Source: Zygnema cylindricum (lineage: Eukaryota > Streptophyta > Zygnematophyceae > Zygnematales > Zygnemataceae). Taken from it: a stretch of 64,000 nt of DNA. Numbering within the stretch: the first letter of the stretch is position 1; each line of letters begins with the position of its first letter. A program made the position numbers and the translations under genes. This document shows positions 11,427 to 40,400 of the stretch, piece by piece. Below the pieces are notes generated by a model. It was not told the origin of the DNA. It worked only from the letters and a program-made list of their open reading frames with translations, and ran no database searches. The stretch is from contig JBBHKE010001545.1 of the NCBI GenBank assembly GCA_037447655.1, positions 24,856 through 88,855 of the forward strand. Direction: 5' to 3'.

Positions 11427-12413
11427 TCATTTTGTTGACAACTCTTGCAGCTCTTCCTTACTAAGAGCCTCCTTTGCAGAAGCTAAATCTTCATCAAGTA
11501 GAATATCAGCTGGACCGTCCCATTTGATAAAAAACTCCGTGTCTCTGAAGTACAAAACTCGATGTATATCACCTGCAGGTGTGAAAAGATAATCGGCAGG
11601 CCCGAGATCATGGCATGTTTTAGCCGAAAGATTGTAAACTCTTTTTTTCCCTGTCACCACGGTAACATCATGGCCATAAGTGTGATGATGAGCTGGTTCC
11701 ACACTTCCGGCGAGGAATCGAACAAAAGCTGACGTCGGATTTTTTCGAAGAATTTGCCAGCTCCCGCCTGGCATCTCCTGAACATCTTCATAACTTTTAG
11801 CATTTGCAAGAACACAAATGGGACACGTGTCATCTTGTCCAGTAGCTGGTGTTTCAGCCTTTCCATTACCAGAATCAGATTCATTGCCTTTTTTAGGAAT
11901 GTCGGAAATTTTTGCCAGTTCTCCCATCGATTCAGCAAGAAAACTGTCAATTTCCTGATTCCATGGCTTTTTGTCACTAGCAGGACAAGGTGCTCTGAAA
12001 TCAGTACTCAGCCATGCGTCTAAAATCTCCTTTCCTTTCTCTATAGATGTATGAGTTCCTCCCATGGTAATAACATTTGCATTATTTATGGAGCGAGAAT
12101 TTTCTGCAGCTTCAACATTATCACATAAAGCAGCATAAACTCCTGCATGTTTATTGGCAGTTATAGTAACTCCCATACCAGTACCACACACCAATATGCC
12201 ACGTGTCTCAAAATTATCTTCATGACTGCCTGTCGGAGCCTTAACTCTCTTAGCAACTTCGTCAGCAACAGAGTAATAGCTGTCCGTACCAAGATCCTCC
12301 ACTGGAATACCTTTTTCTCTGGCGTGACTCACAAGTGCATCTTTCAAAGAGGCGCCAAAACTATCTGCTGCAGCTACAAGTTTTAGAGACGCGGTCTTAT
12401 TAACAGTAGCCAT
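11427..12413 (-). CDS. DRT102: RpiB/LacAB sugar-phosphate isomerase-cupin fusion protein (DRT102-like)
   Basis: Single-exon frame of 328 residues. Residues about 10-135 form an RpiB/LacA/B-type sugar-phosphate isomerase domain: VAAADSFG at the start, the active-site loop ILVCGTGMG with Cys76, and NNANVITMGG. A linker rich in Ser, Gly and Lys (about 170-195) leads to a C-terminal cupin domain. Its metal-binding pattern is visible as AHHHTYGHD (His242-244 and His248) and His284 in GDIHRVLYF. This two-domain order is that of plant DRT102, named for a UV/DNA-damage tolerance phenotype; the actual substrate is not established. The start is the first ATG of an uninterrupted frame. No intron is needed. 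A truncated duplicate of the 3' end lies immediately downstream. Confidence 0.9.
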   Translation of the reverse strand: MATVNKTASLKLVAAADSFGASLKDALVSHAREKGIPVEDLGTDSYYSVADEVAKRVKAPTGSHEDNFETRGILVCGTGMGVTITANKHAGVYAALCDNVEAAENSRSINNANVITMGGTHTSIEKGKEILDAWLSTDFRAPCPASDKKPWNQEIDSFLAESMGELAKISDIPKKGNESDSGNGKAETPATGQDDTCPICVLANAKSYEDVQEMPGGSWQILRKNPTSAFVRFLAGSVEPAHHHTYGHDVTVVTGKKRVYNLSAKTCHDLGPADYLFTPAGDIHRVLYFRDTEFFIKWDGPADILLDEDLASAKEALSKEELQELSTK

Positions 12414-14316
12414 GGCTGGCCGGAAAACTGTAGAGAGCTCCGAAAATGGAGAAAAACTGTTTGACAGCAGTTACACAGTTAACAGCAGTAACTGGAACAG
12501 CGGCAGGCATTGATAATTTGATAGAGCAAGACGGGGAAAAAGAAATTTCTTGCCGCGTTGACGGCTGCGTTCGAAGGTAAATACCAGCCGTTATCTAGTC
12601 CCTGTAAGTGGAGGTGTGGCCGGCATCATATTATATGTTTTTGCTATATTTCTAGGTACACAGAGAACCTTAATGAGCAGAAGGTCTAAATTTCAAATGC
12701 GCGACAACGATTGGAAACGTGTGCTTACGTCAGTTAGCCACTTAGCCCATAATGTACGCGTACTATACGGTACAATACGCCTTAGTATGCACTAACTAGA
12801 TATAGCGTTTCCAAAAAAATTCGCACCTTTGATGTAAAATGCTAAAACGTTAAACAGTCCGAAATTGCCGGCCGGTAACCCCAGGACCAACAGTCGTCAT
12901 CGACGAGTCGACAAACAAGCACCGCGACATCAGTGACATACATCATGAGGGAGCTCAATAGCTCATCATTGACAAGTACGAATCTTCTAGCAAGTGTACG
13001 TACATCTTAAGCTACATCACTGTCATTTCCCAATGCCAATAGTGAAGCCGGAAAAAAGAAAGAGGGTCAGTACTGAAGTTTTCTGTTGAAATCGCAGTAA
13101 TTGATACGTTTGTAGCACAGGATAAATCCTCAAAATTCACTGATTGTGACCAAATATAAAAAATTATATCAAAAAAATTGCACAATAATTTTGTGAAATC
13201 GCCTGTGGACAACTATTCAACTTACTGCTTGATTTCTAACAAGTAACATCTAACAGCATAGGAACCAAAGACCCGAAACATATTCATGTTCCCATACTTC
13301 ATGAGCAAAATTAAGCGCCGGCGAGTCTACATAATGAGCAGCAACATCTCATTTTCCCCAACCTAGTGCGAGAGCAGTTGGCGTTATAGAAAAAATAATT
13401 CAAATACTACACTGAAAAGTCACCGTTGCACACAGTTGATTTCCATCAGAGTATCCAATTCCTCTTTCAGTACAATCCGCTTTCTAAGGAAAGCCATTTG
13501 TGGTTTCTTTCAATAACATGGAATTCAATAGATAAGTCGTTACTAGCGCATACTTGAAGGAACTGAAAACTAGAAAACCAAGCCCACTGAATTGCTGCCT
13601 TAATTTTAGCTCTGAGAAACACACCGCTTGAGCTTCCACAGCAACCTCTCAGTATGTCTCCCTTTTCCTAAATCCATAACTGCAAATGTTGCAACTTGCC
13701 CTAGTTGGCATCCAGACCCAACTAAACATTTCTTCAGGTTTTTACAGTTTTTTAGGGTCTGAAGCAAATGACATAAATACATACTGACCCAGCACAGACC
13801 ACCACAATAAGAATGCCATGGGATAGAAGCAACACATGAGTCATCTACAGATATGAACATTCTAAAATCAATATAAGAAAAAGACCCAGTTCAATGAAAG
13901 GCCAATATCATCGATTGTCGCTTCGAATCTACAGCGCGACTTACTAAGGCATTAAGCTTATCTCTAACTATACTAAACCACTGTCAGGAATCAGTTTCTC
14001 TAATATGTTCAGATAGACAATAGTCCTGTCAGGAATAAGTTTCTCTAATATGTTCAGATAGACAATAGTCCCTTCGAGAGCCTGTTTCAAACTGGATTCA
14101 ATACTACCACATTGCCTTTTTCTGAAACTCGACAAGCAATTTTTTTTATAACCAGAAAGCTGAAACATCCACACCACGAGGGACAATTTACAAACTAAAC
14201 ATATATCTTTAACATCGACAAACCCTCTCAAGATACTGGAGGAAATAAAAATTTATGGAGATCAGTAATAGACCTCTACTAAAACCTTCTTATAACATTC
14301 ATTCTATTTCACATCT
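12414..14316. other. Intergenic region, no gene seen
   Basis: It lies upstream of the minus-strand RpiB-cupin gene and downstream of the minus-strand PIFI-like gene, so it should hold the promoter of the former and the 3' UTR of the latter. Open frames at 13012-13212 and 13606-13860 lack recognisable similarity or clear splice signals. The only structure found is a 45-bp direct repeat at 13981-14070. Confidence 0.5.
13981..14070. repeat. 45-bp perfect-register direct repeat, two copies
   Basis: The unit beginning CTGTCAGGAATCAGTTTCTC at 13981-14025 is repeated immediately at 14026-14070 with a single visible difference. Confidence 0.9.
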
Positions 14317-22200: not shown

Positions 22201-23582
22201 CTCATGGCACATGTTCGTAATCATGTCATGCCGCATCTCGTCGGCCATTCTAATTGTTTGTATTTAGGTGTTAGGACCGGCAGCCGCAACACTAATTTAT
22301 ATTTGGGTGTTATTTGGGTTTCGCAAGACCGTACATACCCACATTTTGCGTTCGCGTCAACCGTACAATTTTCACATCGTCGTACGCGTCGACCGTACGT
22401 ATTCGTTTTGGCCGTAATATGCGCCGACGACAAGTTTATTATACAACTTAGAATTCCCGGATTTTCTGCCGACGGCGACTTTGACCGTACTGAATACATT
22501 CTCCCGAGATTTCCGCCAACGGTGAATTCGATTTTTCACGTCAACCGTATGAATTTTTTTGTCCAGAATTTCCGCGATCATAAATTGGACCATACCTTCA
22601 GTCCAACCGTACCTACTTTAATTTCCGGAAATCTCGGCCGACGACAATTTGGAATCATTTCACGCGAGGGAGCATCTCGGCCGTCGACACCGAAGATGCA
22701 AATTTTGTTACATCATATTTGGATCGTCGATGCAAATGACAGACAAATCGGCTGTCAGTTATGACGAAGCGACGTCGTTGGACCATTTTAAGTCGTGAAC
22801 CATTTGGAGGTTCATCTGTTCACACGTAGATATGAAGGGTTTTAATCCGTAGGTTATAGATTTTGTAACGTAGGGCATAGGATTTCGGCCTCCTATTAAC
22901 TGAATCCAAACTAGACGCAAATATTTACATAGCACGCTGTACTCTGATTGGCATGTTTTCTCTAGGTGTAGTTTAGGTTACTTAGTTTATTTTAGATTAT
23001 TTCCTGGTCACGATTTTCAAGTGCAGGAATTATTCATTTTATTTATTTTCAGTATTGAGGATTTTCTGCAGCCATCTTTTTATTTGTAAAATTGTCCGGA
23101 CAGCTTAAAGGCGATTTTCTGCCTTTGCGTGGAGCGTTTAGTTTTCCATTACATTATCAATATCTTGTAAATCCTTACATATTAATCTATACGGCTTCGG
23201 CCAAGACCTACACGGTTTTCCTTCACTTCTCTCGTCATTTTGAGTGGATTTCGACAGCGTTCTCATGACACAAACTTCTTTTCTCGGTTGTGGCTGAACT
23301 TTAATTAGTGTGGAAGTTGCATGTTGGGATTTTTGATTTGTTGTTTTTATTTCTTGTGATTGTGTATTTATTTCTATTTGGCTTATGCGCATCTTTTGAG
23401 TTTGGCTATCTCAAACCTAATCAGTGTCGGGCATATTGTCGTTTTCAGTTGTTGTTTGTCATTCTCGGTTGTTTATGCTTTGATTTGTTTTATTTAAGTA
23501 TAAATTCAGATTATTCTCGATAAGATAACTCCTGCAAGGAATATAAATAGACCGTGGGGCCTAGTGGCCATCCATCGGCTTA
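22201..23582 (+). repeat. 5' long terminal repeat (lacks the first ~200 bp of the 3' copy)
   Basis: It matches 31307-32684 almost throughout. The 3' copy extends about 170-200 bp further upstream, to the polypurine tract. Here the homology begins abruptly at about 22201, after unrelated sequence. The match to the 3' copy stops at 23582, shortly after the TATA box; downstream sequence (23583 onward) probably holds R/U5 and the leader. The region 22340-22640 is rich in CCGTAC words. The 186-codon open frame here is not conserved in the 3' copy. Confidence 0.85.
23542..23550 (+). promoter_or_regulatory. Putative TATA box of the 5' LTR
   Basis: TATAAATAG precedes a GC-richer stretch (ACCGTGGGGCC). 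It is conserved at 32646-32654 in the 3' LTR, the expected place for the Pol II start of the retrotransposon transcript. A second TATATATAAG lies at about 23865. Confidence 0.55.
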
Positions 23583-24513
23583 GTATTCCTACACTTGAAA
23601 ATTGTCGTGTCTTTTCTTTTCTCGCTTGTTTGTTTTATTTCAATTTCGGTTTTCTTTTTATTTTAAAGAAAAAATAACAAAAATATTTTTAAGAAATCAA
23701 AAATATATTTTTATAGATACATTTCTACAAAAATCTATAACTAGCTTTACATTTATAATTACCATTTGCTTGTTGGTAGGCGTTTTTATCTTGTTGGCCA
23801 ATTTTCGGCCAACGATATACTACACTAACTTAAGTATTTGGTTTTTGTTTCCTTTGTTCTAAGGTTATATATAAGGGGCATTGTTTGCTCACTTTGAGAC
23901 ATACTTCACTAAAAAGTGGAGTTAGTGGAGCGGATCCGTTTTTGGGAGCTCTGCAAAACTTCAGTTGTATCGAACAACCGCAGTTCACCTTTGGCAATCA
24001 CCATATTGCTAAGAGTGTTATGTAAGTATCATGATGCCTTGCGGGTACAGGCGCGTGCTAAGGTAGTCGATTGATCGTTTAGAGGGATATTGTCTGGAGT
24101 GGATTAGTGTTAATCCACTTGTATTGAGCATTGCATTTGTCCTGCTTTCCATGCTTGCTATCTAGCCCTGAGTGGCCTTGGCTGAGTTTGCTTTGCCCGG
24201 TGTGGAATTTCTTCTATAGATCTTGTCGTTTGAGGCATTAGTTAACTCTTTTGTGGATTGTGTCGCTTTAGATCTACACTTATGAGTGCTTGGATAGTAA
24301 GTTATTTGCCTTTATAGATATAGCCCTTCGGCCTTGTCCCCTTATTTGCAGGGTAGAACGTTTTGGTAATACGGCTTCCTGATAGATCTGGCCATCGAGG
24401 CCTTGTTATAGATTGATTGGCTGATTGGATGAGTGAGTGGTGTGGTTTGGCATTTGAAGCACCTCGTATAGATCGATTTTGTTATCCGATTGTCATTTGG
24501 TTTTATCATTTTT
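23583..24513 (+). other. Retrotransposon R/U5 and leader, no gene seen
   Basis: This lies between the end of LTR homology and the first gag codon. No match to the common initiator-Met primer-binding site was found by eye. It should contain the U5 region and untranslated leader. Confidence 0.45.
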
Positions 24514-26330
24514 ATGCCCACCGATTGGGATAATCTCGATTATCCTTTCGGAACCACTTGATCGTCGGCCCCGTTTAGGCCCACAGAATCAGGACCATCA
24601 GATTTACCTAGTCTTTTGGACCATCCTTTCCCGAATATCTCAGGTCAAATTTCCCCTTCGGTTCGATCTTCTCTCACCTCAGTATCCTCGTTATCATCAA
24701 TCTCTTCCACATTTTTCGAGGAAGAATTTGACCACGATTCCCTTGACGGGTAGGATTCTAATTCATTATCTTTTTGGTTTCCACAAATTACAAATTCATT
24801 AATATCCCCAATCATTCCATTATTGGAAATGGCTTCCACATCCGAGGGAGGGGGTCGCTTTCATTTCTGTTTTTCAAGAATGAAAAACACCATGACTTTA
24901 TCGCATTTTCGAATGCTATTCGATACCGAAATGCGTGATCTTGCATTTCGGTACCAAGACCGGTTCGATCTACGGGTCGCTTTCTCTCTTTTAGGCCGTT
25001 CCCTTCGCGGTTCAGCCCTTACTCTTTACTCCCGCAAGTATGATTCTGTACTTGCGATGACAAAGTCTTCTCCATCTTTCGCTGGGAGTCCTGCTATTAT
25101 ACGACAACCAGAAATTCCCTACCAACCGGCTATTACGGAAGTCTTTGATCTCAACAGTTATGTTATTACAGCAGCAGTTGCGGAAATACCGCAACAGTTT
25201 GCTATAGCTGCACGTGTTGGAATCCCAGCACGACCAGCGATGACGATCCTTATATTGGATCCGCTCTCTGTCATGTTTGAAATGTTGCAAGCGGAATACA
25301 GTATGCAAAACCCTGACCAAGTTCGTGAGTTAATGAATGTCGAATGGAAGTCAGGAGAGACCGCCCTTGCCATGCGTGCTCGTATGGAAGCTCTCCGTGA
25401 AGTATTGCCGGACTTAATGTTAGATGCTGAAGCTGTCCAAAAATTTGTTGGACTGTTTCCGAGTAAGTCTAAGAAATTTATCCAGAGTCACCTGACTCAA
25501 ACCTACGGCTTGAAGTTCACTTTCAACCAAGCCGCCCAACATGCTGTAGAATACGAAATGCAAAATTGTTGGTGGGAAGCCCATGACCGTCCTAAAGCGA
25601 TCCCGAAAGAACCTAACAACCGGCCTCCTAAAATCTCGGCCATGGGAACCCCACCTGTTGCTCTTGGAAACCGATTATGTTTTCGATGTGGGAAGACAGG
25701 GCATGATGCCCGAATGTGTCCAGACAAAACTGTTACATGTACACATTGCAAGCAAACCGGACACTATGTCCAACGTTGTCATATAAAGAACCCGAAATTT
25801 TCCTATCAGAACCAAATCAAAAATGGTGGCATTCCCGCTCTATCCGCAAAAGCGGTTCAACCAGTTAAAGAACCGGAGAAGGACACCACTCCACCTAGGG
25901 TATCTCGAAGAGAGAGAGCGTTTAGAAATACAAGAGCAAATGGCGGCTATGATGAAAGAACAATTCGCAGCCTTCATGACTCAAATGAAGCCACAGTTTA
26001 CAGGCATGGCTCGCACTGTTGTACACATGCCCACGTTGGCAGGTCGAATCTTACGAGATTCCACCATCCAACAACAAGAGGCTACGTTAGACAAAGGTTC
26101 CACCGATCACAACCGTGACGGTAAAACTCCTAACACACGCTTCCCTTTGTCATTCACTAAAGAACCTTCTCCTCCCTTGCCCGAAACCGCTTCGGCCATC
26201 GCCGCTGAAGCTCTCAACATAATGGATCGAACTATACACGGGGCACACCGCGTTAAAGAACGCTTGTGCATTCTATCCACTGATTTCCGACTCACCAAAA
26301 ATCTCCCCTATCTCCTTTACCTCCGATAGC
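24514..26330 (+). pseudogene. gag: Retrotransposon gag (two CCHC zinc knuckles), interrupted
   Basis: The reading frame starts at ATG 24514 (MPTDWDNLDYPFG) but is broken by TGA at 24559 and TAG at 24751. It is then open to 26118. The capsid-like helical region includes EYSMQNPDQVRELMNVEW and MRARMEALREVLPD. Two zinc knuckles follow at about 25675-25775: CFRCGKTGHDARMC and CTHCKQTGHYVQRC. After about 25860 the plausible protein (a charged helix EERERLEIQEQMAAMMKEQ) continues in another frame to 26329, indicating a frameshift near 25860-25900. Gag packages the element RNA. This copy could not make a complete protein without recoding. Confidence 0.85.
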
Positions 26331-26438
26331 TCGTGTGCAGCTGTCGCGTTACAAGCACTTCAGCTGCACAGAAATCTTGCTGGTATTTAGCCTATTTCCA
26401 TAGAGGAGCCAAATTCCCTCGATCCTCACATCAGTTTT

Positions 26439-26772
26439 TTGGATAACGGGAAGGGTGCATTGTTGATCAATGGTATAGCCCCTTCCCTGCCTCTCATGGA
26501 TACGGGTGCAAAGCCGGTGATATTGGGCTCTAGCTTTGCACTCAAGTTTGGTCTAACTCCGGACAAGCTTCAGACCACTTCTACTCGCTTGTTAACATTA
26601 GCGGGTACAACCGAGCCGGTCATAGGAATCACTAAGGAACCGCTCGTTTTCACGTTTCAGAATGGAACGACCACAGATTTTGCTGAGATCTCGGTTCACG
26701 CTCTGGTCCCTAAATGTAGTGACTATGAATGCCTAGTGGGACAAGACGTTATGTTTCGTGTAGAAAGTGGAG
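26439..26772 (+). pseudogene. Retropepsin-like aspartic protease of the retrotransposon
   Basis: The frame reads LINGIAPSLPLMDTGAKPVIL, with the catalytic DTG at about 26499-26507. A family-typical C-terminal block, CLVGQDVMFRVESGVDML, follows at about 26735. It processes the Gag-Pol polyprotein. It runs directly into the methyltransferase domain, with a frame change at about 26770. Confidence 0.8.
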
Positions 26773-27794
26773 TTGACATGCTTGGGAATAGGCACTTCCC
26801 TCCTTGCATGTTTGCGGAATGGATTATTAATCCGATTTTATTATTCGGTGGAGATCGATCTGTTAGCACGCAAAGCACAATTACATCATTGTATCTGTTG
26901 CATTCCCAACCCCCGCACTTGTTACCAAAATTTGCATACGAGCATATGCATACTGCTCTCCCACAAGACATTCGCATTGTGGGCAGCTATCACTTACAAG
27001 AAATTGGTCCAATCGATCTAGTTTTTGGCGGATGGGAGTGCTAGGGAATATCTCGGGCCGGGAAAGGTCTCGGATTAGCCGATCCTTGCACCAAATTATT
27101 TTTTGAATTGGTTCGCATCTTGAATTTTTTACAAACTTTGGATCATCTTTTGGGGTATATCATGGAAAATGTCGCAGCCTATAATGATCCAAGACCGATG
27201 GTCTTGGCTGATTATCAACGTATTGAACAATTAATTGGTCCGCCTCTTATTATTGACGCGGCTCGCCATGGCTGACTAGCACACCGGGTTCGCTCCAAAT
27301 GGACGAATCTGAACGATATTGGTAGACTCCGTGAGGCCAACTTGTTAGTTCGTCCTCCTCCTACAAACATTCAGGCTGCCCTTCTTCCTTTCCTTAAGGT
27401 GTAGTCTTGCATTAAAAAGGATTGTCCCCCTAATTTCAATGTCAATGTCCCGGGTCAACCTCTCAAGGTGCTTCCTACCTTAGTTTCTTACCCACATTCA
27501 CATGCATTCTCTCATGACGGTCCTGGCATGCTCCGAAACATTCATACCGGTGAGCTCGAAGAGCCTACCTCTAGGGAACGAGAACACCTCATGCATTTTA
27601 TTCCTGGCAATACGGCCGCTACTGGTCTTAAAAAACGTCAAAGATGCACTTTATTAGGTCGTGTCATGGACCCTTACTCTTTGTCTTTTGTTTTAGGTCT
27701 CGGGTTTGCAGCTGGTCGCCACTGTCAGGCACATCCGTCTCAACCAGCTGGGGGGGGTAATGCATCAAGAAAATCTTTCCGTCCCACTCTCTAA
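26773..27794 (+). pseudogene. Retrotransposon-encoded DNMT3-like C5-cytosine methyltransferase
   Basis: Motifs appear in the order of a C5-cytosine methyltransferase. Motif I-like GIGTSLLACL (26785) and YYSVEID (acidic end at 26848-26859) lie in one frame. In the protease frame come GPIDLVFGGWEC with the candidate catalytic Cys at 27039-27041 (motif IV), LGLADPCTKLFFELVRIL, MENV (motif VI, 27162-27173), PLIIDAARHG followed by LAHRVRSKWTNL (motif VIII region), LPTLVSYPHSHAF, and EREHLMHFIPG ... RCTLLGRVMD (motifs IX/X, LLGR at 27651). The LFFE, ENV, IDA-AHR-R-W and LLGR pattern resembles DNMT3-type enzymes. Motif IV has E where Pro is usual. Stops at 27042, 27273 and 27402 and a frame change between motifs I and IV make this copy inactive. 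The domain lies between protease and RT, inside pol. Confidence 0.85.
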
Positions 27795-27879
27795 GGGACC
27801 ACATTTCAATTTTTCCTCTTTTCTTCTCCAATTCCACCAGATCTTGAAATCTCTATCTACGGTTTTCTCAATCCTAGCC

Positions 27880-29520
27880 ATATGTCTTGGTCTATACTTG
27901 CATACACGGCTGTCTAGTATGCAAGTTTCAAGCATATTCCACCCACTCCTAATTGGAGTGCTGCTTTTCCAACACGTAGTTGGAATCATTTGGTTGATTG
28001 CCTTAAACAGTCACTTGTAACTTACGAGTTAGGTCAAACCCTTATCGCAGATGAGCAGTTAGCATTTGCACTAGCTATAGAAGCTATGACAACCGAAAAT
28101 CCCGATGCTCCTAAATGGAAATTCTGCACCAATCTAACAAAGGCCGCACAAGAGTTACTGAATGACGTAGTTTTACGAAATGTTGATGCCTTTGCCTTTT
28201 CTATGAACGATTTGGGTCGTCACATCGCTTATAAGATGTCGATAGATCTCGAAGATGACGGCCTGATATTTAAACCGAAACATCGTTTGTCAGAACCTGA
28301 ATGGCAAATGGTAGACAGGCGATGTGCTCAACTAGAGGAAGTTGGCCTAATCTATCGGTTGAACTCCACATTTGCAGCCCCCACTGTCATGCCTCGGAAA
28401 AAGGATTCCGAGGGTAATTTTACTCAACGTCGAATGTGTGGTGACTATCGTGAACTAAATGCTAGACAATTCAGGATCGTCATCCCATGCCTCTTGCCGA
28501 AGAAATATTTGATCACGTAGGCGGAGCAAAGTATGTTAGTATCCTTGACCTCCGTCAGGGATTCAATCAAATTGAGATAGAGGAAAAAAATTGGCATAAA
28601 ACTGCCTTTTGGGGTAACGACGGCCGATGGAATGGGCCGTAATGCCATTCGGACTGAAAAATGCTCCGGCAGTATTTCAAAAAGTCATGGACTCCGTTCT
28701 TGGAGGTTGTAAGTTTGCTAGATGTTACATCGATGACCTCATCATTGCCTCGGCTATTATCGAAGAGCACGTTGCTCACATCGAATGGTTATTGACTGAA
28801 TTAAAAAAGGTCGAATTAAAATGTCATCCAGCTAAATGCACTTTTGGAGCCGAGGGAGTGTCCTACCTCGGCCATTTTATCTCGGCTGAGGGGATCACTC
28901 CCCTCGAAGCAAAGGTTGAGGCAATCAGTAAATTGCCTGCTCCCACGGACCTAACAAGTCTGCGAGCCTTTCTCGGACTTGCCAATTATTATTGCAGGTT
29001 TGTATCTAATTTTAGCACGATCGCATCTCCGTTAAACGGCCTTCTCAAGAAGAAAGTGGTGTTTAAATGGGATCTCGATCAGATTTCCGCATTTCAAAAA
29101 TTAAAAACCGCCTTATCAAGTGCTCTAATTCTCTATCCTCCTAATCACAAACTCCCATTTTTGTCTCCAAACAGATTTTGGGAAACCCGAAATCGCTGCC
29201 ATCTTGACACAAAGAGAGTTGAGCGGAGAGGAATACGTAGTTGCTTACGCGGGTAGAAGCAATAACCGGGCTGAATCAAATTATAGTAGCTACGAAGGAG
29301 AGTGTCTAGCCGCAGTTTGGGGAGTCGTTCGCTTCCGCAATTATTTGTACGGAAAACCTTTCACACTCCTAACTGACCACAAGCCCTTACATTGGGTGAT
29401 GACGAACGATAAGCTTTCCGGGAAGCTATCTTGATGGGCTTTAATCTTACAAGAAATATGACGTGGAAATAATTCACCGACCTGGTCTGCTTAGTCTAAA
29501 CGCGGATGGAATTTCCCGAA
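27880..29520 (+). pseudogene. pol: Reverse transcriptase and RNase H of Ty3/gypsy type, frameshifted
   Basis: The segment 27990-28520 carries the start of RT (PKHRLSEPEWQMVDRRCAQLEEVGLIY, RRMCGDYRELNA). The middle (HVGGAKYVSILDLRQGFNQIEI, about 28515-28585) continues in a second frame. From 28627 a third frame gives EWAVMPFGLKNAPAVFQKVMDSVLGG and the polymerase motif YIDD at 28726-28737, then SYLGHFISAEGITP and LRAFLGLANYYCRFV. RNase H follows after another frame change at about 29170, with YSSYEGECLAAVWGVVRF and LLTDHKPLHWV, a stop at about 29432, and EIIHRPGLLSLNADGISRNP. At least three frameshifts and one stop inactivate it. The domain order and motifs are those of Ty3/gypsy elements. Confidence 0.9.
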
Positions 29521-29759
29521 ATCCTTTGCCCCGAACTACAGATAACGTAGTTGACAGGATTTCGATGACGACGATGTTCCCGTCATGGCAATGGGTTCTT
29601 ATCTTACTTACTGCTTGGCCTCTATTCTGAACCCCCGTCCCACCACAGATCCTTGGCGTGATGGGCCTCTCATCCTTTTCCTATCCTCCTTGAACTTCAA
29701 GTGCGGCACTACCTCTGATGAAGAAGACAGAGTGAAAAAGAGGGCCAAAAGTTACCTTT

Positions 29760-30870
29760 AGCACAAAGGATCTTTAGTTCGGTTGTTGGCTGACGGAAGT
29801 CATAGGCACGTTCCACGGGCTACCGAGCGTCTTTCTCTCATTGAGCAGATTCACACTGAGCTTGGTCACTACGGTACCAAGCGAACGTTAAGTCTAGTTC
29901 GGCACGGTATTGGTGGTCAGGAATGCAAATGATGTCGCTGCCATTCTGCACAAGTGTGCCACCTGCGACCGTCTCCAAATTTCTTTCTCTAATTGGCAAA
30001 CAACGCTCCAACCTCTACCCATCAGGGGTTTATTCTATAGATGGTTGGTCGATTTGGCCGACCTTATCCCATCTCACTTAGAGGGAAACAATACATCATG
30101 ATTATGATCGAAAATTTCAGCAAGTGGGTAGAAGTCGTAGCCTTGCCTCATAAGACAGCTAAGTTAACCACCGCAGCTTTTAAGGAACATGCCCTTATGA
30201 GATACGGTGCCCTAGTCGAGGTCCTTACGGATCAAGGTACAAAATTTCGGGGAGAATTTCAAAAGATGCTTGATGAAGCTCTCATCGATCATCGCCGTAC
30301 TAGTCAGGATCACCCCCAGGCTGATGGCCTGGCTGAACGAGCAGTCCAGACATTTAAGTGTGCCATGCGTAAGCATGCTTAGAGAAACACATTTTGGTTT
30401 AGGACGAGTCCCTCGGCTACATTACCATAGGATATCGCATGTCAGTTCAGGCTAGTCTGGCTAATTTCAGCCCGTATTATGTTTTATTTGGGCGACAACC
30501 GTAACTCGGTTGCAATAATCAGAAAGCTGCAAGCTTTCCACTTTCGCTGATGTCTAGCACTATTTTTTTGGAAGAACTCACTCGTCGTGCTTTGCTTTTT
30601 GCCCGTGAAATGCCCATGGCTTTTGATAACCTGCAGATTACTCAGCATAGGGACACAATTGGGTTTGTGACCACTCGAAGCGGCAGTTATAAGCCGCAAC
30701 AGAAGCCTTATCGGGTGGGAGACTATCTTTATCTTCGCAGGCAATATTTCGACACTTTGGACACTGATGTTTCTGCACACATCCTAATGATCATCGAGGT
30801 GGATCTGAACGGAATGTTGGGATTAGAAGTAGCGAACACACGGACTTTTCGAGAGCACTCCAAGAATTGA
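29760..30870 (+). pseudogene. Retrotransposon integrase (HHCC zinc domain and DDE core)
   Basis: The N-terminal zinc domain is visible as IHTELGHYGTKRT followed, in a shifted frame, by CATC. The catalytic core has LVDLADLIP (first Asp region, about 30047), VEVLTDQGTKF (second Asp, about 30230) and DHPQADGLAERAVQTFK (Glu, about 30335). Frameshifts occur at about 29925, 30060 and 30380. The C-terminal part (30550-30870) holds QKPYRVGDYLYLRRQ, a typical post-core region of gypsy integrases. A TGA at 30868 separates it from the in-frame PHD finger. Integrase inserts the cDNA into the host genome. Confidence 0.85.
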
Positions 30871-31119
30871 GCTCCATGTTACTTACCATATTTGTCGCAG
30901 GATATGGATCCTACGCGGATGCCGATTACGGAGGCGACGGCATGTACCTTTTGTCATCGATCGGACGGGGATACTACCATGTTACTTTGTGATCATTGCA
31001 ATCAGGGGTTTCACATGGAGTGTTTGGAGCCACCATTGTTAGCAGTTCCGGATGGTCACTGGTTTTGCCACGGATGTCGCGATCTTCCGGTCGTGTTGGC
31101 TAGCTCTTCTACCGGCTAA
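30871..31119 (+). CDS. PHD finger at the C-terminus of pol (C4HC3)
   Basis: It is in the same frame as the integrase tail, after a single TGA at 30868, and ends at TAA 31117-31119. The residues ACTFC, LLCDHC, FHMEC and WFCHGC supply the complete Cys4-His-Cys3 set of a PHD zinc finger, with the conserved Trp before the last Cys pair. PHD fingers usually read histone H3 tails. In this position a chromodomain is found in many plant gypsy elements, so a chromatin-targeting role is a reasonable inference. The module itself is uninterrupted although the rest of pol is decayed. Confidence 0.85.
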   Translation, partial: APCYLPYLSQDMDPTRMPITEATACTFCHRSDGDTTMLLCDHCNQGFHMECLEPPLLAVPDGHWFCHGCRDLPVVLASSSTG

Positions 31120-31125
31120 AGAGCT

Positions 31126-31134
31126 AGGGGGGAA
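31126..31134 (+). promoter_or_regulatory. Polypurine tract (plus-strand primer site)
   Basis: AGGGGGGAA lies seven bases after the pol stop codon and directly before the region repeated as LTR, as expected for plus-strand DNA priming. The 3' LTR would start at about 31135. Confidence 0.7.
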
Positions 31135-32684
31135 TAAACCGACCTAACCATAACCAGCTAAGTCGTTGACCTTTCTTTTTCTTTCACCTTGCCTGTTGTT
31201 GTATTTATTCATTTTTCTCTTTCGTGTCTTATTTCATTCACAATATATTTTCATCATTTGGATTTAAGTGGAGCACAGCTGATGACATTGCATGCATCTT
31301 CACGTTGTTTGACACATGCACGACAACTGTCATGCTGCATCTCTTTGGCCATTCTAATTGTTTGTATATAGGTGTTAGGACCGGCAGCCGCAACACTAAT
31401 TTATATTTGGGTGTTATTTGGGTTTTGCAGGACCGTACATACCCATATTTTGCGTTCGCGTCAACCGTACAATTTTCACATCGTCGTACGCGTCGACCGT
31501 ACGTATTCATTTTTGGCCGTAATATGCGGTGACGAGAAGTTTACCGTACAACTTAGAATTCCCGGATTTTTTGCCGACGGCGACTTTGACCGTACGACAT
31601 ACATTCTCCAGGATTTCCGCCGACGGTGAATTCGATTTTTCACGTCGACCGTACGAGTTCTTTTATCCAGAATTTCCGCGATCGTAAATTTGACCGTACC
31701 TTCAGTCCCACCGTACCTACTTTCATTTCCTGAAATCGCGACCGACGACGATTTGGAATCATTTCACGCGAGGGAGCATCTCGCCCGTCGACACCGAATA
31801 TGCAATTTTTGTTACATCATATCTGGATCGTCGATGCAAATGACATGCAAATCGGCTGTCAGTTCTGACGAAGCGACGTCATTGGACCATTTTAAGTCGT
31901 GAACCATTTGGAGGTTCATGCGTTCACACGTAGATAGGAAGGGTTTTAATCCGTAGGCTATAGATTTTGTAACGTAGGGCATAGGATTTCGGCCTCCTAT
32001 TGGCTAAATCCAACTAGATGCAAATATTTACATAGCACGCTGTACTGTGATTGGCCTGTTTTCGCTAGGCGTAGTTTGGGTTACTAAGTTCATTTTAGAT
32101 TATTTCCTGGTCACGATTTTCAAGTGCAGGAATTATTCATTTTATTTATTTTCAGTATTGAGGATTTTCTGCAGCCATCTTTTTATTTGTAAAATTGTCC
32201 GGACATCTTAGAGGCGATGTTTCTGCCTTTGAGTGAAGCGTCTAGTTTTCCATTACATTATCAATATCTTGTAAAGTCTTACATATTAATCTATACGGCT
32301 TCGGCCAAGACTTACACGGTTTCCCTTCACTTCTCTCGTCATTTTGAGTGGATTTCGACCGCATTCTCACGACACAAACTTCTTTTTTCGGCTGTGGCTG
32401 AACTTTAATTAGTGTGGAAGTTGCATGTTGGGATCATTGATTTGTTGTTTTTATTTCTTGTGATTGTGTAGTTATTTCGATTTGGCTTATGCGCATCTTT
32501 TGAGTTTGGCTATCTCAAACCTCATCAGTGTCGGACATATTGTCGTTTTCGGTTGTTGTTTGTCTTTCTCGGTTGTTTATGCTTTGATTTGTTTTATTTA
32601 AGTATAAATTCAGATTATTCTCGATAAGATAACTCCTGCAAGGAATATAAATAGACCGTGGGGCCTAGTGGCCATCCTTCGGCT
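31135..32684 (+). repeat. 3' long terminal repeat
   Basis: It begins after the polypurine tract with TAAACCGACCTAACC, and from about 31307 it matches the 5' copy. It has the conserved TATAAATAG at 32646-32654. The sequence after ATCCTTCGGCT (32684) is not the R/U5 seen in the 5' copy but a second copy of the first ~195 bases of this LTR. The U3 part (31430-31720) is dense in CCGTAC words, shared with the 5' copy. Confidence 0.8.
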
Positions 32685-32880
32685 AATAAACCGATCTAAC
32701 CATATCCAGCTAAGTCGTTGACCTTTGTTTTTCTTTCACCTTGCCTGTTGTTATATTTATTCATTTTTCTCTTTTCATGTCTTATTTCATTCACAATATA
32801 TTTTCATCGTTTGGATTTAAGTGGAGCCCAGCTGATGACATTGCATGCATCTACACGTTATTTGACACATGCACGACAAT
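32685..32880 (+). repeat. Second copy of the LTR head
   Basis: It repeats 31133-31327 (AATAAACCGAYCTAACCAT to ACATGCACGACAA) with few differences, directly after the 3' LTR. It may be the start of another, truncated LTR or a recombination product. Confidence 0.8.
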
Positions 32881-34271
32881 CAACATCATCAACAAAAAAA
32901 TTGCCTTTTTTGGTGGTAACAGCATGACTTTGATGGTGATTCACATGGAACCTTTTGTTGCCATCACCGTGATGTCTACAAGGCAAAGCAGGCGGGGATA
33001 ACACAAATTGTCAAAGATTTTGGCTTACTTTCTTAGTTTTTCCAGAGGTTCAGATTTTGCTCAAGGGTGAAAACCTGCAATGTATCTTTGACAAAAGTTC
33101 CTGCATTTGTTTTTTATATTTGTTGGCTACCCTCAAAAATTAACTAACTGGGCAGTAGAGTTTCCTCGAAAACAAGAACGGACGCTTTTATGAACCCACA
33201 CATCAGAGATGACAATCCTTTGAGAGCTCATAAAGTGTCACGGTTTCACCACATCAACAATTTTTTCAAAAAAGAAATAAAAGCAGAGAAAACATTTAGG
33301 TCGTTCAATGTCAGCTGCGACTTCCACTCCAAACTGACAACCAACAATAGTAGGTTTTAATGTAGATTTCAATTTTCACTTAAGCTCAACTGGTCGCCGT
33401 TTAAGCTCTTTCTAGGAAAAAAAAGACGTGTTAAGAATCAAATATTCTTATAGATTTGTTTAGATGCAGAAGTTACTGTACTTTCCTGGTTTGATTCTGA
33501 TTATTTGGAGGTTTTTTAACTATGCATTTAGTATCATCCATTTGTCATATGTATCCTTTGATAGTAGTTTAAAGGCCTTAATATTTCACTTTATTTCAAT
33601 ACCATTTTACTCGCAAATTTTACCCCCGGGTAGATAGTAATCAAAATTATTGTTTATAGCTCCAAGATCAGTATTACTTATTGCACTCAATATGTATAGA
33701 AACTCAATAGAACTCCAGATGTATAGAAAATAATCCTATTATGTAAAATATCAATTCTTAAGCACACAAACCTTGCAAAGGCATAAAAGACAGTAAAACC
33801 TACGTGATCCAGTTTAAGGCATATCCAAAAAACAACGCACTATTGGAAAACCTAACATTACTTTCAAATGTAAACGAGGAGACACCAACAGGGAACATTG
33901 CTTTAACGTCGCTACATTAACCAAAACTGTTGATTGCAAGTAACAATCTTATCCGTAAAAACTGCCAAGAACCGGAAACTAGCAAAACCTCGTCTTTGGA
34001 ATTGCAACGGTATTTACAAATCTCACTAAATAAACAAATTGACATTAATTACACATCACCGCTTAAGAAATTTCCTTTATTTACAACACTCTCCCAAAGA
34101 CGAAAGGAAGCAGCCTTCTCGCAAGAATTACTACTAACATACCTCTTGACAGTATTGGCTGAAACGCTCCCTCATTCCTTATATCTTTGAACTCTTCCAA
34201 AAATCGACTGAGGACAATCGACAAAGGATTTCTTCACATTCTACTGAAGCATTCAAATTTGTGTTGATTCC
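32881..34271. other. Intergenic region, no gene seen
   Basis: AT-rich sequence between the retrotransposon and the end of the ceramide kinase gene. Short open frames lack similarity. It probably includes the 3' UTR of the minus-strand kinase gene near its right end. Confidence 0.45.
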
Positions 34272-37409: not shown

Positions 37410-40400
37410 GAGTGTTAGAAATCGGCGATATTCAACTTATCGCAAAGGCGCCAAAGTGTTAACTTTGGGAAATGGCCAAGCCGGGGATCGAACCCGGGAC
37501 CTGTGCAAACCGCACACTAGCTCTACCAACTGAGCTACCCGGCCGATGTGTACGCAAGCGCCTAATACCGAATTTATACGGCAATGAGCGGCGCACTGGC
37601 GAACCACCTTAGAGCGCGATACACACGTGTGGAGTCCAAAGTGGACAGTTCTCCAACAGAGACAATACACAAATGATACATTTATCACACTTGAATCACT
37701 GTTATGAAAATTCTTACTTTTTATGATGACCTCTTGTTCCTCCTGCCCCACCTGGCCATGGACCATGGGGCACAGATAATTCTGAACCAGAAGTGAAATT
37801 CTTAGGCATCTCCAAAAATGACACCTCGGCTTCATATTGTCTGAAAAAAGCCCCAAATGGACCGAAATGGCTCAGAAGCTAAACCGTTTGATTAATTACG
37901 TGTTTGATTATTTCAAAATGCTAATAACTTCCTTTGTGACTAGTAAACCTGGAGCCTCAACACACAATTCACAACCACTTGTGTGATCTACACACAGGGA
38001 GCCTGACAAAAAGGACAAAACGCTTCAATAAAATTGACTTGTTAAGCTTGAACTGCTTAAGCAAATCAAAATAAGGAACAGTTTACCAAGTTCTATCCTC
38101 TAAGAGACTGAAAAAGGTAAAAAAATAAAAGCCTCACCGATGGCGAAGGTAGGTCATGAACCCCGCATAGTCGTACCGAGCAGGTCCCATCCATCGAAAA
38201 TGTTCACTCTCACGAGCTACATCCCCATAGAAACCGTAACTGTTCCACCACCAGTGACTCCAAAAACCAGGAATAAAATCTCAAGTCATGCACTTACATA
38301 GATGTACCAAAGGACATCTCTCCGCAATGAGAAAGTTGAATGTGAAATGGACCAGACATAACGACCACTGGATTACCCAACATGAATAATACGAAATGTG
38401 TATTTCCCGTGAAACTGGGACGCAATTTGTTTCTCCCTAGTGAAATAGACTACCTTGCTTGCTAAGACCTTACTATGCATCCTACGCATATATTCTCCGC
38501 ATTCATATATGCAAACCGTATGGCTGGAGGTAATTTCTTGCATTGCAACAGCCTATGGCTTTGCCAGAGGTAAGGTCATAAACATCGAAACTCACAAACT
38601 AAACAGCAAAAAAATTATGAATATAACAACTCGCTTTTTGACCTACGGTTCTTATTCCAGTGTCAAGCAGAGACCAGAACCTTATAACTGACAGGCTTTA
38701 AATATTTCTCTACCTGGAGATCCTCGTGTAGGTTTACTAGTTCGGAAACTCACCCACAAAATGATGCTGCATATCGCACATTTGGAGTCTCTTCTTTCGG
38801 ACCAGTTCGTTTTCCATCCTTCAATGGATGTCTTGATTCTTTCCATCCCGTAACTCGGACAATATCCAGAGGCATTCGATCTCCTAAAATGATATGTAAT
38901 GCTGCAGTCACATGGTCGCGACTCCCAGTAGTACTGCAGCAGCGAAGGAAAAAAAAAAGCAGAAAAAAAACTTGTCTCACAACTCAAAAAAGACAGATTA
39001 AAATAAGCCGGCTCATGTCACAAGTTCCTGTAAAGCCCTGAATGTCCCACCAGCATCAAGAGATGACATAGGCGATTAATTCCAACAAGAATTACACATG
39101 ATTCTCTGATTCAATCATCTCAAGCAATAATCCAGTTTTTCTCCTAGTATCCACAAAAAAAATCAAGCTGTAACCCTACCTCATAACAATTGTGTCGGTA
39201 GATCCTGCGGGAATAATTCCAATGCGTAACTTCCTCTTGCTAATTGTCAACCCAACATCTGGTGTTAACAGAAATCCTGACTCTTGGCTTATATTCCTTT
39301 CTATCGAAGACTCATTAACGGACATGGGACTCTCATCTCTAAGGAATTTTTCTGCCATTTTATGCCTAACTTGATCATGTCCTGTGTCAGAATCAGCTTC
39401 TGACTGAGAGGAATTATCCTCACCAAAAGTTTTGTTACTGGATAATGTGTTATTGTTTCCCGCAGGCCCATTTTCGTCACAATGTCTTTTACCCTTAGAG
39501 GTCCACTCCCCATCTATATCAGCCCCCAGACTACCCCAGTTTTTGGAATTTGCAGATGTGCTTGCAAGGTCGCCAGCCTCTGAGTTCGGATCGTTTATAA
39601 GAATAGGTGAAGTTCCCAGCTGTAATGGTCTGGATATTTGCCTAACGGCGCTCTCTCTCCCACCGGAAATATTCTCTGAATCAGCCTCAAGACGCTTATA
39701 TCCATCATTTGAAGTTCCTAAGATTCCCGCTACCTGTTTTCCCTGAGTATGAAGCTTAGTAGAAACATGGGTACCGTGAGCACTATTTTCTGATGTAAAA
39801 ACTGATGAAGTGGATGTTCCCTGTGAATCCTTTTTATTTCTTTTGTAAGGCATTGGAGCTGGGGGTGGATGGTGATATTTCGACGCCAAACCATTCAAAA
39901 CTTCGTTGAAAAGTCCGTCTCCACCCTATGCAGCACCGACGCCACATTAGACAGTGAAACTGCTGTTAAAGTCGTTGTTGAAGAAGTTACAAATCTCGAA
40001 AGAAGTAGCCATTTGGTTGAATGTGATTGTTTTTTTTTAAGTTTTAACATGTTACGTCGTGCAATGTTGAATCGTGAAAAATGTCATCTGCATATAGCCT
40101 GTACTTTGTTTTTTTGCAGTCGCAGGCTAGAGGAGAGGTGGAGAGATTCTCGAAGAGGTAGAGAGAGAAGGCCATGGCTGCCTATTAGATAGTTCAAGAC
40201 AGAGTCAATATTATTCCACAAAAAGCCGATATTATCTACGATTTGAATAAAGCCCTACATATTGTCTCAATATCGTTGGATAACACTGTCCGTAACCAGT
40301 TGATGTAGGTTTCCAATACACAGATGGAGTTTGATATTTATTTAAATCATTACAACTTTTTACCGCTCATTTAACGGAAAACATACAAACTGCGGTACAA

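What the first reader, a model, noticed from the sequence alone, without database searches (positions are those of the whole stretch)
26773..27794. Ty3/gypsy retrotransposon that encodes its own DNMT3-like cytosine methyltransferase
Between the protease and the reverse transcriptase the pol region carries motif I (GIGTSLLACL, YYSVEID), a motif IV equivalent (GPIDLVFGGWEC), motif VI (MENV), the IDA...LAHRVRSKW block and the C-terminal EREHLMHF...LLGR block, in the order of a C5-cytosine methyltransferase. LTR retrotransposons normally lack this. I recall reports of retrotransposon-borne DNMTs in dinoflagellates and in a charophyte (Klebsormidium), so this is probably a related but possibly undescribed lineage. 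The unusual Glu-Cys in place of Pro-Cys in motif IV deserves attention. One idea is that the element methylates its own copies to escape or shape host silencing.
Basis: partly seen in the sequence, partly recalled or inferred. Interest (0 to 1): 0.9.

Follow-up and report, generated by a model that had tools for sequence, protein, structure and literature searches.

The report
Jumping genes with altered methylation enzyme
A retrotransposon in a green-lineage genome carries its own DNA-methylating enzyme, a kind known since 2018, but in many of its relatives one residue beside the catalytic cysteine, normally proline, has become glutamate and been kept, which raises the question of what these enzymes really do.

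Summary
Window 22224-32878 is a decayed Ty3/Gypsy element (gag, protease, DNMT3-type domain, RT, RNase H, integrase, PHD finger) with a DIRS-like B-coding-A-B-A repeat layout and a 4-5 bp target-site duplication. A Gypsy element with a DNMT3 domain and that layout was published in 2018 (KnitGypsy-Dnmt3), so the headline is not new.

What I found no notice of is the point flagged in passing: Glu-Cys in motif IV is not decay. Near copies (91-93%) have it, and a relative, L010, is one open 2395-aa frame. Of 70 near-full-length domains 45 have Glu, 24 Pro, 1 Asp. In 49 Glu rows the catalytic Cys and motif VI Glu are 49 of 49, at 41% median identity. The Glu rows are not one clade (AU p 7e-8); 6 Pro/Glu changes are needed. 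In a viral scan open to Glu or Pro, 18 of 18 relatives have Pro. The genome holds Glu and Pro families; the Pro families are CpG-poorer, a weak lead.

Best reading: an old Gypsy lineage keeps a catalytically intact DNMT3 whose active site switched repeatedly. The Glu form's substrate is untested; structure prediction never ran.

The parts
22219..22223 (.). target-site duplication, left copy (AATCA; the last 4 bases if the element ends in CA)
   Evidence: read in the flanks printed; right copy at 32878-32882
22224..23580 (+). 5' terminal repeat, unit B (starts TG)
   Evidence: 93.8% to 31328-32684
24754..26118 (+). gag reading frame (stop to stop) with zinc knuckle
   Evidence: zf-CCHC E 1.8e-5; a like gag is in the open 2395-aa frame of L010
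26391..26772 (+). aspartic protease
   Evidence: Asp_protease_2 E 3.5e-4, under the cut-off; 91-92% to L019, L020, L040, L044, L047
26773..27012 (+). DNMT domain, motif I part (other frame; about 420 bases lost just upstream)
27006..27794 (+). DNMT domain, motifs IV to X, with Glu-Cys in motif IV; three in-frame stops
   Evidence: 91-93% to L019, L020, L040, L044, L047
27918..29434 (+). reverse transcriptase and RNase H, in broken frames
   Evidence: RVT_1 E 1.1e-18; RT_RNaseH_2 E 6.2e-4, under its cut-off; frames
30041..30382 (+). integrase core (DDE type)
   Evidence: rve E 1.6e-9
30943..31077 (+). PHD finger at the end of Pol
   Evidence: PF00628 E 2.5e-12
31133..31326 (+). repeat unit A, upstream copy
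   Evidence: 94.9% to 32685-32879
31328..32684 (+). 3' repeat unit B
32685..32878 (+). repeat unit A, terminal copy; the element ends here

Best explanation
The window holds a dead copy of a Ty3/Gypsy retrotransposon whose Gag-Pol polyprotein includes, between protease and reverse transcriptase, a DNMT3-type C5-cytosine methyltransferase domain, and at its end a PHD finger. [quoted passage not shown] Inferred: the domain acts inside or beside the particle on the element's own new cDNA or at its insertion site, and the PHD finger helps aim integration at chromatin, as chromodomains do in chromoviruses (recalled). In the Glu-Cys form the covalent C5 chemistry is still in use, because the Cys and the motif VI Glu are kept without exception, but rate, target context or nucleic acid differs from the Pro-Cys form. 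I think a weaker or differently targeted methyltransferase is the most likely.
For: Domain order gag-PR-DNMT-RT-RH-IN-PHD in one open 2395-aa frame of L010 and the order PR-DNMT-RT in 7 of 7 copies listed. DNMT3A is the best solved match for both forms. Glu at the site in 45 of 70 domains, Cys in 69 of 70, motif VI Glu in 70 of 70; in 49 Glu rows Cys, motif VI Glu and Asn and the first motif VIII Arg are 49 of 49, the second Arg 48 of 49. Between Glu sublineages of this genome dN is 0.11-0.18 while synonymous sites are saturated, and the Glu codon varies between GAA and GAG. Glu rows not one clade: AU p 7.3e-8; 6 changes on the DNMT tree, at least 4 forced by starred branches; 4 changes, at least 3 forced, on the RT tree of 45 elements, so the switches are not only domain swaps. 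Viral relatives found with a pattern open to Glu or Pro: 18 of 18 Pro. CpG observed/expected median 0.87 in 12 Glu frames against 0.65 in 14 Pro frames. Recent movement: repeat pairs at the 3' end are 99.6, 99.6, 95.7 and 99.5% alike in L010, L011, L013, L020.
Against: No activity, expression or methylation data exist here. Structure prediction never ran. The CpG contrast rests on about three Glu and two or three Pro lineages, so its p-value (6.7e-5, copies counted as independent) is far too strong; GpC differs too (0.91 against 0.79); CpA is raised in the Pro frames (1.25 against 1.15) but TpG is not (0.95 against 0.97, p 0.37), as deamination would ask; and a Pro-Cys element of another organism (L087) is less depleted (0.73 and 0.84 in its two frames). 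The window element's own terminal repeats show 19 of 88 differences as CpG transitions, so CpG change acts on a Glu element too. On the quick tree with outgroup the starred branches force only 1 change. Many of the 70 rows are near-copies of each other. In the published yeast test the Klebsormidium DNMT showed no activity, called inconclusive by its authors (PMC5890265).
Confidence: 0.55

Rival explanations
1. The Glu form has lost methyl transfer and serves as a binding or structural module of Pol (a pseudoenzyme, as DNMT3L is recalled to be).
For: 18 of 18 viral relatives keep Pro, so losing it is expected to hurt; Glu families show less CpG depletion in this genome.
Against: Residues needed for catalysis are kept in 49 of 49 Glu rows (Cys, motif VI Glu and Asn, first motif VIII Arg), not less strictly than in the 27 Pro rows (Cys 26 of 27, Asn 25 of 27). 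Pseudoenzymes usually lose these. The tree suggests changes back to Pro.
Confidence: 0.2
2. The Glu form is a fully ordinary cytosine methyltransferase; Pro and Glu are near neutral at this site in this family.
For: Repeated switching with no other column separating the two groups at the thresholds used.
Against: Among viral relatives 18 of 18 have Pro; in the family the site is almost only Pro or Glu (1 Asp in 77), where a free site would drift to many residues. Pro to Glu needs at least two base changes.
Confidence: 0.2
3. Glu-Cys is sequence decay, a frameshift or an assembly error in the window copy.
For: The window copy is broken by stops, a frame change and a deletion.
Against: 24 of 60 fetched loci read Glu at the site, 6 of them with the domain in full open frame, and so do 44 of the 68 database proteins counted.
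Confidence: 0.01

Closest known systems
KnitGypsy-Dnmt3 of Klebsormidium nitens (de Mendoza et al. 2018, PMC5890265)
   Same: Gypsy domain set, DNMT3-like domain within Pol, DIRS-like repeat layout described for it, purifying selection, same starred DNMT clade as the K. nitens protein P0070
   Different: Motif IV is Pro-Cys in P0070 and Glu-Cys here. The term PHD does not occur in that paper's main text; its figures and supplements were not seen. Here a PHD finger ends Pol.
SymbioDIRS-Dnmt3 and SymbioLINE-Dnmt of dinoflagellates (same paper)
   Same: Retrotransposon-borne DNMT; split repeat layout in the DIRS type
   Different: Those have a tyrosine recombinase or LINE machinery; here a DDE integrase
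Animal DNMT3A/B
   Same: Best solved match, motif order and motif VIII block alike
   Different: Glu for Pro in motif IV; embedded in Pol; ADD and PWWP domains were not searched for as such
RID/Masc1 fungal enzymes
   Same: A eukaryotic C5 methyltransferase family with an odd catalytic motif
   Different: There motif IV stays PCQ and motif VI changes to EQT or EET; here motif IV changes and motif VI stays (PMC6709928, passages)
Chromoviruses
   Same: Gypsy elements with a chromatin-reader module after the integrase
   Different: PHD finger, no chromodomain, in the window piece scanned

Membership tests
KnitGypsy-Dnmt3 type elements | Gypsy domain composition with DNMT inside Pol | tested here: met
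KnitGypsy-Dnmt3 type elements | DIRS-like split repeat layout | tested here: met
   window; a repeat pair spaced like A-B-A after the frame also in L010, L011, L013, L020, but not in L019, L009 or L012 within the stretch fetched; the left ends of these copies were not examined
KnitGypsy-Dnmt3 type elements | DNMT groups with the K. nitens element | tested here: met
   P0070 in the starred 14-row clade 97/93 with Glu and Pro families of the window's genome
KnitGypsy-Dnmt3 type elements | conserved key functional residues, Pro-Cys included | tested here: not met
   Glu-Cys in motif IV; other catalytic residues met. I therefore call it a variant. That Pro-Cys is among the residues the paper means is my reading; its Supplementary Fig. 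13a was not seen
DNMT3 | closest to DNMT3 among C5 methyltransferases, motifs in unrearranged order | tested here: met
   (solved structures only); no tree with host DNMT3 genes was built
DNMT3 | de novo methylation of DNA | not testable with these tools
   needs an assay
DIRS retrotransposons | tyrosine recombinase, no target-site duplication (recalled) | tested here: not met
   rve integrase and a 4-5 bp duplication
Chromovirus | chromodomain after integrase | tested here: not met
   Pfam on 30871-31116 gives PHD, no chromodomain

The most novel reading that the evidence does not exclude
Glu-Cys marks a second functional state of the C5-methyltransferase active site, reached and left several times by selfish elements: an enzyme that keeps covalent C6 attack but works on another substrate (for example the RNA-cDNA hybrid or single-stranded cDNA in the particle) or in another sequence context, so that its element avoids CpG self-methylation and its mutational cost.
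Probability: 0.25. Interest if true: 0.85.

Novelty: new variant of a known kind. Interest (0 to 1): 0.66.

Why it matters
PCQ of motif IV is described as a conserved triad of C5-cytosine methyltransferases (PMC6709928, passage), and 18 of 18 viral relatives have Pro. A large natural set in which Pro has been replaced by Glu, with the rest of the active site kept, and in which the change seems to have gone back and forth, is a ready experiment on how this enzyme class sets its substrate and speed. It also widens the list of named carriers: Haematococcus, Closterium and Marchantia records are among the relatives, beside Klebsormidium; a 2019 opinion paper already spoke of methylase-bearing Gypsy and DIRS elements in green algae and charophytes in general terms (PMC6338049, passage). 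One genome holding both forms makes methylome comparison simple.

Tried and rejected
Rejected: Glu-Cys as decay. Rejected: my recollection that RID/Masc1 have Glu-Cys; they have PCQ with an altered motif VI. Rejected: Glu forms as one clade. Rejected: switching by DNMT domain swap alone (the RT tree still needs 4 changes; 45 rows, 36 Glu and 9 Pro, had enough RT).

Looked for Glu-Cys outside retrotransposons: a scan of viral contigs with patterns open to Glu or Pro only gave 18 relatives, all Pro when read with a motif open to any residue; a scan of prokaryote genomes gave one relative, an algal-type Gypsy element with Pro-Cys and a PHD finger in a cyanobacterial MAG (L087), likely contamination. 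The domain-only protein search scored only the 8000 candidates sharing most words and gave 15 hits.

Outgroup: the 18 viral enzymes plus 4 (P0084-P0087) of the 9 weakest hits. My script picked the viral frames with a motif that demands Pro, so by itself does not test their state; one search does.

Literature: searches (open-licence PMC only). None of the listings or passages I saw describes Glu-Cys in motif IV or a PHD finger in these elements. Seen: PMC5890265 parts 1-3 of 7, its Discussion and passages; passages of PMC12344493, PMC6709928, PMC6338049, PMC9915684, PMC3227630, PMC9998398; the rest as listings. Supplementary figures could not be read here, so the residue may be visible in a published figure.

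Not obtained: genome-wide counts of Glu and Pro copies, DNMT-less sister elements, host DNMT3 genes and host identity by rRNA (genome search answered once; busy); a structure (structure prediction queue full).

Rows dropped: of 78 proteins with a DNMT match (76 database, L009, L010), 70 covered over 75% of the profile and were counted; 8 were left out. Some of the 70 lack motif I, and several are near-copies of each other. Of the 123 genome matches, 60 stretches were fetched, not at random (long frames and top scores first; 20 each): 24 Glu, 32 Pro, 4 neither (one of these, L022, looks to me like a host chromomethylase gene).

Full report
What was claimed. Translation confirms every motif named. 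On the broken DNMT pieces Pfam is weak (one of five pieces, E 0.013, below cut-off), but a profile of relatives in open frame scores four pieces at 23 to 110 bits.

Anatomy. Unit B at 22224-23580 is repeated at 31328-32684 with 93.8% identity; unit A at 31133-31326 is repeated at 32685-32879 with 94.9%. The layout is B-coding-A-B-A. The sequence AATCA flanks both outer ends, and the element runs from TG to CA if the duplication is taken as 4 bases (read), so the terminal A belongs to the element. A pair of direct repeats, 186 to 243 bases long, lies after the Pol frame in L010, L011, L013 and L020, 99.6, 99.6, 95.7 and 99.5% alike, spaced as A-B-A would be; only L020 and L019 match the window's unit A itself by blastn, and L019, L009 and L012 show no pair within the stretch fetched. 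So the layout seems to be a property of the Glu family, and three of these four insertions look young. The 2018 paper says of KnitGypsy-Dnmt3 that its repeats are like those of DIRS while its domains are of Gypsy; the same holds here. The two B units of the window copy differ by 6.8% (K2P), and 19 of 88 differences are transitions at CpG.

Copies in the genome. The window lies in an unnamed eukaryote assembly of 353 Mb, 2689 contigs. One search scored 123 of 782 DNA_methylase candidates, all over the cut-off; many lie in long open frames. L010 has one open frame of 2395 aa with gag, protease, DNMT, RT, RNase H, integrase and PHD finger (gag, RT, integrase and PHD read by eye and by likeness to the window). 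The nearest of the fetched copies with the whole DNMT block are L019, L020, L040, L044 and L047, at 91-93%, all Glu. In 7 of 7 copies listed, the DNMT lies between protease and RT; the PHD finger matches in 6 of the 7. Of 60 fetched loci, 24 read Glu at the motif IV site, 32 Pro, 4 neither. The Pro copies form families of their own (L009 type and L025 type on the tree).

Relatives elsewhere. Protein searches gave 38, 43 and 15 hits (5's were already). Most are unnamed environmental proteins; those with an organism name are Haematococcus lacustris, Closterium sp. NIES-53, NIES-54 and Naga37s-1, Marchantia polymorpha and Klebsormidium nitens. The PHD domain is annotated in 28 of the 38 hits. The Haematococcus and Closterium proteins read Glu; those of Marchantia and Klebsormidium read Pro. 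A 2023 survey found no DNMT3 in green algae of its transcriptome set (PMC9998398, passage).

The active site. In 70 domains the residue before the catalytic Cys is Glu in 45, Pro in 24, Asp in 1; the Cys is present in 69, the motif VI Glu in 70, both Arg of motif VIII in 70. No other column separates the Glu from the Pro rows at the thresholds (over 70% and 60%). With more copies from this genome (77 rows), all 49 Glu rows have Cys, motif VI Glu and Asn, and the first motif VIII Arg, at a median pairwise identity of 41%; one lacks the second Arg. The one domain without the Cys (P0048, Tyr) is a Pro row. This is not what a dead enzyme looks like.

Selection. Among seven Glu domains of this genome in open frame (one partial), pairs between sublineages have dN 0.11-0.18 with synonymous differences at saturation (171 to 198 differences); pairs within sublineages have dN/dS 0.21-0.31, one of them on a single change of each kind. 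The Glu codon is GAA in some and GAG in others. In the Pro families the ratios run from 0.10 to 0.37, with one pair at 1.26 that rests on two synonymous changes.

Repeated change. On the DNMT tree with the trait column masked, Glu and Pro need 6 changes, at least 4 forced by starred branches; holding the Glu rows as one clade is rejected, p-AU 7.3e-8. On a tree of the RT domain of 45 of these elements, 4 changes are needed, at least 3 forced. With 22 phage and bacterial-type enzymes as outgroup, all Pro (the viral frames were picked by a Pro motif in that script, open to any residue, shows Pro in 18 of 18), the ancestral state is Pro at 6 changes against 9 for Glu, but that quick tree forces only 1 change by starred branches. 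If only Pro-to-Glu change were allowed, 11 gains would be needed; with a single gain, 7 losses. So a Pro origin with several switches in both directions fits best; the exact number is open.

A lead on function. In frames of at least 300 codons that hold motif IV, CpG observed/expected is 0.75-0.95 in 12 Glu frames (median 0.87) and 0.56-0.83 in 14 Pro frames (median 0.65) of the same genome. This would fit Pro enzymes that methylate CpG on their own copies and Glu enzymes that do so less. It is a lead only: the copies come from about three Glu and two or three Pro lineages, GpC differs in the same direction, TpG is not raised in the Pro frames, the Pro element L087 of another organism is less depleted (0.73 and 0.84), and host methylation and codon use were not controlled.

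Family. The best solved relatives of both forms are DNMT3A/B, ahead of DRM2, HhaI, HaeIII and Dnmt2; the motifs are in unrearranged order. No tree with host DNMT3 genes could be made. A 2025 paper (PMC12344493, passages) repeats that some DNMT3 members sit in retrotransposons of streptophytes and dinoflagellates, which it calls LTR Copia and DIRS.

Host. The genome has an exon that I recognise as chromomethylase-like (L022; no family search was made) and an RpiB-cupin gene at 11430-12470, which I recall as the plant DRT102 type; I take it as a streptophyte. Zygnema cf. cylindricum SAG 698-1a is a candidate: 359.8 Mb in 3,587 scaffolds, and a PHD family at least 9-fold larger than in the other Zygnema strains (PMC9915684, passages). 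If so, these elements could explain that PHD count. This is a guess from size and one remark.

Verdict. The element kind is known; the Glu-Cys active site, its conservation and its repeated exchange with Pro-Cys are the part I found no notice of in the ten searches listed under Tried and rejected. Mechanism beyond that is inference.

Noticed in passing
P0075: A relative's protein carries both a cytosine DNMT and a Dam-type adenine methyltransferase domain (PF05869, name recalled) by precomputed Pfam.
   Followed up: no
P0068: One Glu-Cys Pol carries both PF00385 (chromodomain, name recalled) and a PHD finger by precomputed Pfam.
   Followed up: no
L087: A contig of a cyanobacterial MAG (AVDCRST_MAG81) encodes an algal-type Gypsy element with Pro-Cys DNMT and PHD finger in two long open frames; likely contamination from a eukaryote.
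   Followed up: partly
P0042, P0044, P0051, P0055: Marchantia polymorpha proteins with a Pro-Cys DNMT of the same family and no RT domain annotated; [quoted passage not shown]
   Followed up: no
P0018: One relative has Asp-Cys in motif IV.
   Followed up: no
PMC9915684 (passages): The PHD family is reported at least 9-fold larger in Zygnema SAG 698-1a; PHD fingers carried by such Gypsy elements could inflate the count.
   Followed up: no
window 37473-37544 (-): tRNA-Asn (GTT) gene.
   Followed up: no
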